Shown: piece by piece, positions 15,401 to 27,400 of the stretch
Layout: the number at the start of each line of letters is the position of its first letter
How positions within the stretch are numbered: the first letter of the stretch is position 1
Source: Mesostigma viride
Taxonomy: Eukaryota; Streptophyta; Mesostigmatophyceae; Mesostigmatales; Mesostigmataceae
DNA length: 64,000 bases
Direction: 5' to 3'
Assembly: GCA_009746045.1 (NCBI GenBank)
Contig: RPFO01000594.1
Coordinates: 1,036,653-1,100,652 of the forward strand
The notes under the pieces: model-generated
Database searches by the model: none
What the model was told of the DNA's origin: nothing
What the model saw: the letters and a program-made list of their open reading frames with translations, nothing else
Position numbers and translations under genes: made by a program

Positions 15401-18400
15401 AACTTTGACATTCTGCAGGCCTGCCACGTCACTCTGTGAGACATGCTTGTTGGACCATGTCTGGTGGTTGCTAGAAACGAGCTGTAGCTAGTGCTGCTAT
15501 GTGTGCTAAGGACGTTTCCAAGCATTTGTAGTTTGCCGACATTTGCTCCTGTGTGTCATACCTTCCCTCACTTCCCCATAACAGCCATCAACCTGAGTAG
15601 ATGGCCCGTCCACGTGCATGTTGATTCGGCCCCTCACAGCCTAGACCCTCGCGATGCCCCATCTTTGCTTCTTGTTTCATTCTCGCTGACATCCGTTTGT
15701 TCTTTCTTTTCCTCTTTCTTTCTGCCTCCCTCCCCCCCATCCCTGCTTCCTTTGTTTTTTGGTTTTTACGCCTGTCTTCCTTTCTGTCTTTCTGTCCTTC
15801 TTTCTTTCGTTCCCTCGGTCATTACTTACTTCCTTATTCTCCCATCTGCCCCCCAATTCTCCCCACCCCCACCCCCCTGCAGGAACGTGCACCCCGACCT
15901 TGACTTAGGGGCGACGGTGAATGAATACATAGCTGCCGGAAACAACACCGCCCTGAGCGGCATCATCTCCCTGGACACAGCCTACGCGCCCATGATGCCT
16001 GGCATGCTGCCCGCGATCCAGGCCATCGCCCGCGCCGGGAAGGCCGTGTACCTCGCCTACTCGCACACGCACGTGATCGAGCCAACGGCCAGCGAGGCCC
16101 TGCAGGGGACCACTGCGAGCATCGACCTGCTTGACGTCGGGCCAGGGGATGGCACCAACAGTAGCAGCAGCAGTGGCGGCAGCAGCAGCGGGGCTGGGGG
16201 CATTGTGCCGGGGGGGGGCATCATCAACGTAGCGGCCGGCAGCATCAACTCCACCGTGCCTGGGACCGCCACCCCGGACGGCAGCAGTATAACTGGGCTT
16301 TCAGCTGTGGTTGCGGGGCGGGCACTGGCCAGCACGGTGCACCAGTCCCTGGAGATGTTCGATGCGCATGCCGCAGTGGTCACGGACTTCGTGAGCGCAG
16401 GGACCCTGGTCAGCCGCCTCGCAGTAAAGCTGGGTGCACGCCACTTGCTGGCGAACAACGCCTTGTACATGCTGCCATGGGCATGGGAGCTCATGCGGGG
16501 GGTTGTCATGGGCGTCGTGGGCGACAAGTACGAGTTCCCGAACGGAACGTGGGCATGGCCATTAACGGCGCATGGCAGCCCGAGCGACGGCACGGGCGCG
16601 TGGAGCCTGTTCCTGTCCCCGCAGACGAATCAGACGGTGCAGGTGCGTGACCGAGAATGCCCCAGGATGCAAAGGATTCAACCCTAGGATGCAAAGGAGC
16701 TCATTGCTTGGATGCAAAGGAGCTCATTGCTAGGATGCACAGGAGCCCATGGCTAGGTTGCAAAGGAGCTCACTGCTAGGAATCATGCAAGGTGAAGTGG
16801 CAGGGATGCGCGCTGGTTCCCTGGTGTGTTTGTCATCGGGCGCTGCTGCTTGCTACTCGTGGGATAGTGGGCTGCTCGCTACTGGGATGGTGGGGGATCT
16901 TTCTACCGGGGTCGTAGGTAGGAGCGTTGACCTCGCTACCTGCCTAATAGGTTTAGTCGTACCTAGTAGAACGGCGCCATGGTTCATACTAGGTATGAGT
17001 CGTACATAGAAAGCCGCCAGGCTGCTTGCATCTGCCACTCAGACTGCTTGCGTCACGAGCCCCTGTCTGTCACTCCTAGTCCACCTGTTACCCCTGGCAG
17101 CTTGCGAATGGCGTGACCCGGTTGCGCAGGAATATGTGCCTCCTGGATCCCTATTTTACGCTATTGCTCCTATCAGCGCTCCTGGGCAACCCATCTATTA
17201 CCCGACCCCAGGGGATGAGCGGCGTGATGCGGCGGCACGTCTGCCTCGCGTTCCTTTTCAACGTGGGGCTTCTGGCACTCACTTTCCCTTTTTTGATGTG
17301 GGGACCCCATCTGTAACACTCCTATCGATCTCAGGTGATGAATGGAGAGATCCCCATCCCGGGCAGCAACTTCCTCCTGCCCCTGTACAAGCGGCTCGCC
17401 TACGATATGCCCGCACCGGACCTGCTCATGGTACAGACGATGGACACCTCCATTGGCCCCGCCACGCTCTCGCTGCTGGCAAACCTGTCGCTGGCCCAGC
17501 CGGCGCGCCCACCTGTCAAGCTGATCACCCATAAGTGTTCCGCGTCCGAGTTCCTGGCGCTGCTGCGCAACGGCACGCTGCCGGGGGAGGACCGCCTCTT
17601 GGGCTGTGTGGACGAGCAGGTGGGCAGACACAGCATAGCTCAACAATGGGGGACAGGGCTTGGTACAGTTGTCTAGAAAAGCGTTGCTAAAGGGCCTTCC
17701 ATGGACGAGCAGAGGTGTTGGTTGCAGGCGCGTTGGTAGCATGACACAAGGAGGTAAAGGGTGTGTCGTCGCTTGATGGGGGCCGCTTCATGCCGCGCGT
17801 GGACGAGCGGGTGCATCTAGATGCTGGCACGATACTGGCGTGATAGAAGCGGGGAGACGTTGTAATGAAGAGTTTTGTAATCTGCGTCTCCTGGGATGCG
17901 ACGACAAGCGGGTGGGTGCGTGTTGGCGGGCACAGCACGGCGCTAGCAGGATACGGGCGGCATCGAGGCGTGGTCCATCATACTGGCTGGTAGCACTCAT
18001 GATGGCTGGATGAGTTGTTGCTGGGCTGTGTGTGGACGAGCAGTTGGGTGGTATGACTTGTGGACAGAAAGGACCTGACTCTTTCAGGAGGCCCTAGCCT
18101 TGGGCTGCGTGAACGAGCTCTTGCGTGGGTGGTGGTTACTGGTGTGACAGGCAATAGGACTCCAAACGTGTGTTGAGAAGTGGCAGCACACTAATGACAC
18201 TAATGGGCGTGCGCAGACGAGCAGGTGGGTGGGTGGTGGGCACCAGTTAATGCTAGCCTGATGAAATTAGTGGGAAAGGATCGACTCTGGTTTATGAGGG
18301 GCACCTCATGGGTATGGACAAGCAGGTAGCCGTGATAAGGTGGTGGTGTAGACCGAAGTATGATGGGTGATGCGGCCGACAGTGAGTTAGCTCTAAATAG

Positions 18401-24400: not shown

Positions 24401-27400
24401 GGCGACCGAGGTGGTCAAGTCTGCGGGTTACGGGGGAGGCGGCGACACAAAAGGGGATGTGATGGTGTACAGGTGGGTGGCCCAACGGGGTGGTGGACAG
24501 GTGGGTGGCCCAATGGGGTGGTGGACAGGTGGGTGGCCCAACGGGGTGGTGGACAGGTGGGTGGCCCAATGGGGTGGTGGACAGGTGGGTGGCAGGTGGC
24601 CCAACGGGGTGATTGCTCTGATGCTTCCCGTCTCGGTTATCTATGCATCTATCTATCTGGGGCCCGGTTATATATCTAGGCAGCTATCTGTTTTGGACGC
24701 GGTCATCTAGGCAGCTATCTGTTTTGGACCCGGTTATCTAGGCAGCTATCTGTCTTGGACGCGGTTATCTAGGCAGCTATCTGTCTTGGACGCGGTCATC
24801 TAGGCAGCTATCTGTCTTGGACCCGGTTATCTAGGCAGCTATCTGTATTGAAGGGAGTGGAAGGAATTTTTTCAGGCGTTAAGCATCTGTTTAAAAGATA
24901 TATCCACACATCGAAGGAAATCATTGTCTGCATTTGAAAGGAACTGCAACAAGGTATGCATGTTTAGCTGAGGGCCACCCTGCTCCATAGATGCGATGAC
25001 TGTGGTTGCTTCTGTCGCTATGCTGCCTTCTTTTTTGTCATGTCCACCATTTCCACAGTTGCGAGGTTACAAACAATTGTGAAGATTGGCCATAACTGTT
25101 GTCATGGCAACCAGTGCAATATTAGCTGAAATACGTTTCAGTCGTTTTTTAAAGAACACCGCCGCTTTGTTTCTGTTCTCATTCCCGTGGAGACCTGAAG
25201 TAGTTATAGGGGCCATATGATCGCTAGCCCACCCAGGCATGTCACACAGCGATTCACCCGCCCATTATCACGATCACAAGCGACAATACCATCCCATGCC
25301 AGCCCCCTGATGTCCCCCTCCCATCCTCCCCTTCGCTTCTATCATCGATCTGCCACCAACGCGCACTCGCTTTGTCTCTACAAACGCGCATCCTTGAACT
25401 TCTGGCCATGCTGGCTCTATGTTCCATCATCAAAGTGCCTCGCCTACTCTGGACGCACCATTGCTTTGGCGCCTGCAGGGGGCTGCGGCTTCAGATCGGC
25501 ATGTGCATGGGCGTTCCCAGCGACTGCCAGCCGCACAAGGCCACCGGGCGCGCCGCCTATTTTGGTCCGATGGTCAATCGAGCGGCCCGCATCGCCGCCG
25601 CGGCCGCACACGGCCAATCGCTCGCCAACCGGGGTCTTTACGAGGCGGCTCACGAATCCACGCCGGACCTGACTTGGAAGGAGATGGGTGTCTACTACCT
25701 CAAGGTGAGCGCCTTCAGATAGCTGGATAGGTCTATCCATTTCTGGCCTTTGTTCGCTCCGTGTGCATCAACAGGCAATAGAAACAAAATGCCTCTCTCT
25801 AATGGAAGCCCACCTTTCATGGCAACCACTAGCCAACCATGCACTACCTGGATGGCTTGGTTACAGGTACCAGCACAAAGATGACTTTTCCCCCCTATTT
25901 TTTGTGTGCTATACTGCGTTGCGTTCTCGGATCAGCATGTTAGTCATGGATGAAATGAGCATAGCTAACCAAATAGGATCGAAGTTCTTTGAAAACACTT
26001 GAGATACCACCGCAAGCGGCTGGGACAGCCACCGACGGCGCTGTCCTGCCAGCAGTGCGGATTGCAGGCGTTAGACAAGTTATACATAAAAAATGGCGAA
26101 TTGTGGGCTGGCTGCCCTTGGTCAGGCCGTGCGCCACTACTTACAGTAGTCTTTAGGCTCTGGTACATAATGTACGGCATGGCTGAAAATGCGTGTCACA
26201 TACTAGTGACCTCGTGAATAGTTTTGATAGCAGCTGTGGCTTGGTCCGGGCACGAGAGGAGACGGGCATCTTTGCCCCCTTCCCAGTGTGCAACACACAG
26301 GGATGGAAAGCACTATACATGTGCTCCGCATGTCCCGAACGGGCCCGCCCGAAGTTAATTAATTAATTTATTAATGCTAGTAATGTCACGGTCGCCACAT
26401 GTCAGTGGCCATATTTTGTGACGAAAGCACTTTGTGTGGCAAGCTCTAGTGGGCTTTGGAACTAGGAGTAGGAATAGTTCTAAGCAAATGTATTTTGTAA
26501 GGATTCTGTGATGCCAAGCATGACGCCACATGGAAATCGACTGACAGTTGTCAACGGCTGTCGTGCTTGGCCGAAGGTTAACATTGCCAAAGGTGGTTTG
26601 TCCTCTGGGTAATTTCTTTCACAATTGGGCTGCGCCGACACCCAGTGCCGGCAGCAAGAGTTGAATGGGGAAACAAGAAAGTCCCCAGCCTCATACCTGT
26701 TCATAGCGTGGGGCCAGCTCCGAGTAATTTTATTGCGGCAGTTGTAAATTTACCCATGCTTTTCTGGAGCGGTTGACAGGCTGCCAGATTTCTTGGACCT
26801 GTGTTACGGTCTGGGTGTTTGTTTTTTTTTTCCCAGTTCGTTTTTTTGTTACTATGCATTATTAAGAGAACCGGCGGAGTCATCCTTGCTGAGCTGTAAC
26901 AAGCCAGCAATTTCCACTATTGTCACAGCGTCCCGGGAGCTAATTGGCTGTGGCAGAACATTGTACCTGGGGATGCTTGCACTCCAGGTTGTGCTGGAAG
27001 GAGGCCGCTGAAGCATCCATCTTTAAAAAATTATTCCCAGCAATTACCACGGGGCGTAGTTGGGGGGTCTCGCTTAGTGCTGTGGCAGGCGCCCAGCTGG
27101 TCTTTTCAATGCGCCGAATCCTGCCAGATCTGCACCAAGCTGTGGCCGCGACGGTAATCGCCCTGCGAGAGGGGGCGATTCCGCCGCCCAGCCGTGCATG
27201 AAAGGTGGCCCTTGCTTGGGTTACTAAACTGGAGGCGAAAACACAGTCGCCACAATTTAACTTCGGATAGGTCGTGCTCGAGGTCGGGGATGAAGCGAGG
27301 CGCATCGGCGCTTTAAGTCAAGCTTCAAGTCGCCAGGGGAGGGAGGATGGTGCATGCAGTACAAGTTAACAGTTGTAATCGGATTTCTTGAGTTTCATGT

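What the first reader, a model, noticed from the sequence alone, without database searches (positions are those of the whole stretch)
17596..24613. Tandem arrays seeded on 5' splice sites in four introns of one gene
In introns 6, 7, 9 and 10 of the cyclase gene, the last bases of the exon together with the GT donor are tandemly copied into the intron: about 8 decayed copies (period about 100), about 43 copies (period 40), 3 copies (period about 65) and 5 copies (period 28). Unit lengths and sequences are unrelated, so this is a recurrent process at donors rather than spread of one satellite. Weaker hints exist in introns 4 (15073-15092) and 5 (array 15 bp after the donor). It could be a way introns grow, or a source of competing donors. 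I know of no described mechanism that anchors minisatellites to 5' splice sites.
Basis: seen in the sequence. Interest (0 to 1): 0.88.

Follow-up and report, generated by a model that had tools for sequence, protein, structure and literature searches.

The report
Exon-end copies inside Mesostigma introns
In the green alga Mesostigma, several introns carry fresh or decayed copies of the end of their own exon together with the splice signal, probably because small duplications at that place do no harm, and this may be one way its long introns grow.

Summary
The window lies in Mesostigma viride. In the cyclase gene the exon end plus 5' splice site is copied into the following intron at 4 of 9 donors (>=16/20 over a junction word), against 0 of 9 acceptors. 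Paralogs carry the same units in other copy numbers. Of 30 introns that my gene finder predicted in 200 kb not chosen for repeats, 8 donors have such a copy, against 1 acceptor, 0 of 120 words further inside the exon and 0 of 870 swapped donor words. The 8 lie in four genes (p300-like acetyltransferase, S1P lyase, SnRK1/AMPK-like, CDPK-like), five of them in one gene. Two of 17 predicted stop codons also have copies downstream; two acceptors have copies, and 2 of the 3 copies seen there lack the AG. In one cyclase array the copies change as fast as their surroundings. Best reading: small duplications over coding/non-coding borders survive where the original signal is read first (donor, stop) and are mostly removed at acceptors. 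Unresolved: older copies often end near intron position +6, which may mean donor-linked breakage.

The parts
15073..15098 (+). intron 4: decayed copy of the end of exon B plus donor, 130 bp inside the intron
   Evidence: exon-only match 16/20; aligned in three paralogs
17600..18331 (+). intron 6: end of exon D (donor after 17619) and seven decayed, irregularly spaced copies
   Evidence: best 17/20 and 16/20; cores 9/182 and surroundings 27/581 variable among P1, P2, P5; no copies at >=15/20 in P3 and P4
19558..21297 (+). intron 7: 40-bp tandem array starting 6 bases before the end of exon E (19563)
   Evidence: TRF 43.5 copies, 97% matches; 6 copies in P2, 1 in P4, 1 at 14/20 in P3
23235..23402 (+). 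intron 9: end of exon G (donor after 23264) with 67-bp unit, one strong and one weak further copy
   Evidence: 18/20 and 13/20; 4 further copies in P3, TRF 4.5 copies in L012
24463..24593 (+). intron 10: 28-bp tandem array including about 10 bases of the end of exon H (24472)
   Evidence: TRF 4.7 copies; 4, 2 and 1 further copies in P1, P2, P3
16664..16781 (+). intron 5: 23-bp array lying wholly inside the intron, not donor-spanning
   Evidence: TRF 5.2 copies; donor word best 12/20
11587..28922 (+). host gene: receptor-like protein with a cyclase catalytic domain; ten exons recognised, 5' end not determined
   Evidence: one open frame; Pfam PF00211, E 3.6e-12; Mesostigma relatives P0001, P0002, P0003

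Best explanation
The copies come from small duplications (units from about 20 to somewhat over 100 bp) spanning a border between coding and non-coding sequence. At a donor or a stop codon the original signal stays first in the reading direction, so the protein is unchanged and the copy lies in neutral sequence. At an acceptor the copy lies upstream and offers an earlier AG, so it is mostly removed unless that AG is lost. Surviving copies expand or shrink as tandem arrays and otherwise decay, while the exon-side original is held fixed by coding selection, which keeps old copies recognisable. Shown: copies at donors and some stops, scarcity at acceptors, copy-number turnover among paralogs, no extra conservation of copies in one array. 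Inferred: the duplication event itself, the 'first signal wins' rule, and the cost at acceptors.
For: Donor against acceptor: 8/30 and 1/30 in introns chosen by fixed thresholds; with cyclase and eight added introns 14/47 and 2/47, Fisher P 0.0018 (the added eight are biased upward). Stops: 2 of 17. Acceptor copies: 2 of 3 without AG. Donor words copied upstream into their own exon: 0 of 47. Paralog copy numbers differ at the same donors. Copies not conserved in intron 6. Use of nine cyclase copy donors would break the protein. Small tandem duplications are a described product of break repair (PMC8355091, passages).
Against: Donors exceed even twice the rate of interior intron words (10/38 against 6.0%; P 0.0125 against 12%, with the biased 38), so a donor-specific input is possible. 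Older copies often lose similarity at about +6, more sharply than plain duplication with neutral decay predicts when indels are few (0.29 observed, 0.52 simulated); with many indels the gap shrinks (0.40 simulated; P 0.04 per copy, 0.22 with one copy per intron). One acceptor copy keeps its AG. The sample is small and five of the eight unselected cases are in one gene.
Confidence: 0.55

Rival explanations
1. Donor-linked breakage: breaks recur just inside the intron near +6, and repair re-synthesises the adjacent exon end and donor with filler between, giving copies that end at +6 and have unrelated flanks.
For: Twelve exon-matched copies in 7 of 30 introns match the donor at about 0.82 over +1 to +6 and then about 0.30 over +7 to +20. 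Right edges are 7 or less in 13 of 20 unselected copies. A CDPK copy has 48/52 exon identity but an unrelated flank. Donor rate above twice the interior rate.
Against: Stop codons and acceptors have copies too. Recent arrays share flanks well beyond +6. The edge effect depends on the assumed indel rate. No nearby template for the filler was found in six cases scored.
Confidence: 0.22
2. Functional decoys: copies are kept as competing or U1-binding 5' splice sites that regulate the intron.
For: Copies often keep a donor-like GT or GC motif; the donor part matches at 0.81 against about 0.6-0.8 in neutral simulations at the same exon identity.
Against: In the intron 6 array cores vary as much as surroundings (9/182 against 27/581). 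Copy number and presence differ widely among paralogs. No RNA evidence was available.
Confidence: 0.1
3. Recursive or nested splicing: each copy ends in AG|GT and serves as a ratchet point.
For: Many copies keep AG|GT.
Against: What is kept upstream of the AG is exon-like sequence, not a pyrimidine tract (by eye). Several copies have lost the AG or the GT.
Confidence: 0.03
4. Chance, an assembly artefact or wrong gene models.
For: Introns here are repeat-rich: 157 of 2606 interior words have a partner at >=16/20. Most unselected gene models come from a home-made gene finder, and some of the 30 introns are probably false.
Against: 0 of 870 swapped words. The same donors are hit in paralogs at other loci with other copy numbers. 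Long-read assembly at 113x (PMC6947507, passages). Six of the eight positive joins lie inside colinear alignments to solved relatives.
Confidence: 0.04

Closest known systems
Intron gain by tandem duplication of an AGGT-containing segment (Rogers model; PMC4974935, PMC3629103)
   Same: duplication of a short segment around a splice junction; protein unchanged; fission yeast cases have several tandem units inside the intron
   Different: there the duplication creates a new intron whose acceptor lies in the last copy; here the intron already exists, copies lie towards the donor side and the acceptor is unrelated
Tandem repeats enriched near intron-exon junctions in Chlamydomonas and Volvox (PMC3887541, abstract and passages)
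   Same: repeat-rich green algal introns with an excess towards intron ends
   Different: that paper reports both ends, counts in tenths of intron length, and in the passages seen does not say that exon bases are part of the unit or that donors differ from acceptors
Small tandem duplications from repair of breaks with overhangs (PMC8355091, passages)
   Same: short duplications (under 100 bp) as a common insertion type
   Different: no link to exon borders; mechanism shown in mammalian cells
Border-induced selection on intron length (PMC9748784, passages)
   Same: conserved borders bias which indels survive in the neutral sequence between them
   Different: treats lengths only; does not treat copies of the border or a donor/acceptor difference in the passages seen
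Introners (PMC9860276, search listing only)
   Same: recurrent sequence that adds intron content in many genes
   Different: introners are described as elements that copy themselves into many genes; here each intron's copies derive from its own exon

Membership tests
Rogers-type intron gain by tandem duplication | the acceptor AG lies in a copy of the exon end, so the intron runs from copy to copy | tested here: not met
   acceptor words and donor words are unrelated in the nine cyclase introns; acceptor words reach at most 13/20 in the intron
Rogers-type intron gain by tandem duplication | intron newly gained relative to relatives | not tested
   cyclase paralogs share the intron positions; no outgroup gene structure was examined
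Introners | one sequence family shared between introns of different genes | tested here: not met
   donor words of other introns reached 16/20 in 0 of 870 trials
Minisatellite / VNTR | head-to-tail units with variable copy number | tested here: met
   introns 7, 9 and 10 and their paralogs; the old dispersed copies in intron 6 and several other genes are too irregular to say
Functional alternative 5' splice sites | copies conserved above neutral neighbours | tested here: not met
   one array only: 9/182 against 27/581 variable columns
Functional alternative 5' splice sites | use in RNA | not testable with these tools
   no RNA reads available
Duplication by break repair (tandem duplication with or without filler) | copy adjacent to original with filler or microhomology at the join | tested here: inconclusive
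   unrelated flanks in many old copies, shared flanks in young arrays; filler templates not found in six cases

The most novel reading that the evidence does not exclude
The 5' splice site itself marks the breakpoint: in this alga breaks recur at about +6 of introns and repair copies the adjacent exon end and donor forward, so introns grow from their 5' ends by re-synthesising the exon edge. Prediction: among young copies genome-wide the right edges peak at +5 to +7.
Probability: 0.22. Interest if true: 0.92.

Novelty: new variant of a known kind. Interest (0 to 1): 0.72.

Why it matters
How introns become long is an open question. Here introns in several conserved genes carry copies of their own exon edge, from fresh to old, which points to a stepwise and polar route of intron growth from the donor side. 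If the polarity holds genome-wide it would show which splice and stop signals the cell treats as 'first wins'. It also warns annotators that such introns are full of donor-like decoys.

Tried and rejected
Genome-wide count of one donor word repeated at 10-40 bp: 46 matches against 88 for the reversed control. Many come from a few arrays; not discriminating, and reported as no support.

Spread of one mobile element: not favoured, 0 of 870 swapped words. Inverted copies: best 13/20 in 39 introns. A transposon with a long target-site duplication: not favoured, because the first spacers in the cases looked at are mostly under 100 bp. Selection on copies: tested in one array, not met. Templated filler: seven cases listed, six scored; apart from the next unit of one array nothing above 13/16.

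A first simulation seemed to reject simple duplication (P 0.0000-0.0066). Matching simulated copies by exon identity and allowing more indels gave P 0.00025 to 0.22 for the unselected set, depending on indel rate and on taking one copy per intron. I leave the founding mechanism open.

The 'homology-verified' subset (10 of 18) is biased, since I verified genes in which I had seen copies; it is not used as a rate. The eight curated extra introns in the 38-intron set share that bias, so 8 of 30 is the cleaner figure. The confident introns in L031 and L032 showed no donor copies, and an acceptor word in L031 outside the confident set matched 16/20. The L029 donor flagged (17/20) proved to be a stop codon.

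Stops: one search printed 19 rows; one repeats L029 and the cyclase stop appears in two paralogs, hence 17. Several of these are in retroelement-like or doubtful frames. The swapped control gave 2 of 342 at >=16, and both must be the repeated L029 row against itself, so the Fisher P of 0.012 is conservative. The L034 stop copy includes a run of G and is weaker than that in L029.
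Full report
WHERE IT IS. The three longest best matches of the cyclase are Mesostigma viride gene models (jgi/Mesvir1; 59, 58 and 55% identity), and the window maps to a 439.9-Mb, 2243-contig genome. This agrees with the published 442-Mb long-read assembly of strain NIES-296 with mean intron length 1142 bp (PMC6947507, passages). The gene has one open frame through ten recognised exons and a cyclase catalytic domain (PF00211). 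Reading P0001 and P0002 by eye shows the joins E-F, F-G and H-I and corrects my acceptor of intron 9 to 23985.

THE OBSERVATION. In introns 6, 7, 9 and 10 a 20-base word over the donor (12 exon, 8 intron) recurs at 17, 17, 18 and 18 of 20. Intron 4 reaches 14, and 16/20 on exon bases alone. The other four donors reach 11-13, and the nine acceptor words 11-13. Exon bases shared are about 6 in intron 7, 10 in intron 10, 26-30 in intron 9 and 9-22 in intron 6.

PARALOGS. Four further loci with the gene or part of it were examined; nine shorter matches were not. At matching donors the same units occur in different number (further copies at >=15/20): the 40-bp unit 43 in P1, 6 in P2, 1 in P4, and one at 14/20 in P3; the 28-bp unit 4, 2 and 1; the 67-bp unit 1 in P1, 4 in P3, 13/20 in P2; intron 6 copies in P1, P2 and P5 but not P3 or P4. 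The best acceptor word in any paralog is 15/20. So founding duplications are older than some gene copies and arrays keep changing, which also argues against an assembly artefact.

UNSELECTED GENES. I wrote a small gene finder. On the cyclase, on which it was first trained, it recovers the ten exons except the acceptor above, with one or two spurious small exons. I applied it to 130 kb of contig C1 taken at a round coordinate, and to seven 10-kb stretches: the first six kinase hits covering under 200 of 263 profile positions in E-value order, plus one multi-exon hit. Thirty introns passed fixed thresholds (20 from C1); some are probably false. Eight donors have a copy at >=16/20 in the intron, against 1 acceptor, 0 of 120 exon words 30-80 bases upstream, 0 of 870 swapped donor words, 2 of 870 swapped acceptor words and 43 of 449 intron words. 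A position profile peaks at words starting in the last 20 exon bases (23 of 120), with 2 of 359 further inside the exon (starts -100 to -41), 4 of 464 in the first 80 intron positions, and 6-14% from +80 to +240, where copies lie. The eight are in a p300/CBP-like acetyltransferase (five), an S1P lyase, an AMPK/SnRK1-like kinase and a CDPK-like kinase. Six of the eight joins fall inside colinear alignments to solved relatives (joins 5082 and 12485 do not), so those exon ends are old coding sequence and copying went from exon to intron. Examples: 46 exon bases copied in the acetyltransferase; 52 in a second CDPK intron, at 50/52 and 48/52 identity. With eight further introns from the same genes (a biased addition) 10 of 38 donors and 2 of 38 acceptors; with the cyclase 14 of 47 and 2 of 47, Fisher P 0.0018.

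NOT ONLY DONORS. Two of 17 predicted stop codons have a downstream copy of the coding end plus stop at >=16/20 (the swapped control is 2 of 342, both from a duplicated row). The clear one is the end of a kinase (MAPK-like by recall) in L029, aligned from 43 bases before the end of the stop codon. Junction copies exist at two acceptors of 38; of three copies, at -98, -77 and -286, two have lost the AG and one keeps it. Donor words were not found copied upstream into their own exon (0 of 47).

HOW IT MOST LIKELY WORKS. Small duplications arise over exon borders; short tandem duplications are a known product of break repair (PMC8355091, passages). At a donor or stop the original signal is met first and the copy is silent; at an acceptor the copy offers an earlier AG. 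Of nine cyclase copy donors tested, eight would shift the frame and the ninth meets a stop, so the first donor is the one that gives the conserved protein. Copies then multiply or shrink as tandem arrays and otherwise decay. In the intron 6 array, cores differ among three paralogs at 9 of 182 columns and surroundings at 27 of 581, with 11 more gapped: no constraint seen. The exon original is frozen by coding selection, which should lengthen the time a copy stays visible. Shown: copies, polarity, array turnover, neutrality in one array. Inferred: the founding event, first-donor choice, and the cost at acceptors.

WHAT DOES NOT FIT YET. Donors exceed twice the interior rate (6.0%, 157 of 2606; P 0.0125, with the biased 38). 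In twelve exon-matched copies the match is about 0.82 over +1 to +6 and about 0.30 over +7 to +20. Plain duplication with neutral decay gives 0.52 with few indels (P 0.00025 per copy, 0.014 with one copy per intron) and 0.40 with many (P 0.04 and 0.22). One CDPK copy has 48/52 exon identity and an unrelated flank. Young arrays do share flanks. A donor-linked break therefore remains possible and is my most novel reading.

NOVELTY. Partial precedents are intron gain by AGGT duplication (PMC4974935, first of five parts read; PMC3629103, passages) and repeats near intron ends in two green algae (PMC3887541, abstract and passages). The listings of searches showed no title or abstract describing arrays seeded on donors or this polarity; only open-licence papers were searched.

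LIMITS.

Noticed in passing
window 17620-18932 (intron 6): Among P1, P2 and P5 the copy-bearing 5' part of the intron varies less (36 of 763 columns, 11 gapped) than the rest (72 of 611, 71 gapped). Gene conversion or constraint could explain it.
   Followed up: partly
window 21785-22085 and 24634-24850: Further arrays (46-bp and 31-bp units) inside introns 7 and 10, away from the donors. The 31-bp unit also occurs in paralogs at L010 3937-4051 and L012 2679-2978.
   Followed up: partly
window 18451-18537: An imperfect inverted repeat within intron 6, seen by eye.
   Followed up: no
window 28578-28671 and 28961-28997: A 21-bp repeat inside the last coding exon and a 16-bp repeat just after the stop codon, whose units contain TGA.
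   Followed up: no
window 2381-4051 (+), 40286-43723 (-), 52224-53036 (+), 56507-57922 (+): Long frames that look like retroelement proteins flank the gene; named by recalled motifs, not scanned.
   Followed up: no
window 59916-60980 and 63457-63826: Two arrays of long units (173 and 120 bp) outside the gene.
   Followed up: no
window 22740-25704: The protein seems to hold two cyclase-like regions, 26-28% identical in tblastn cross-matches; the Pfam model matched only the first.
   Followed up: no
L010 1258-2597 and 2722-2914: In paralog P2 intron 9 holds a CT-type run of about 1.3 kb and a run of C; 124 bases of that intron read N.
   Followed up: no
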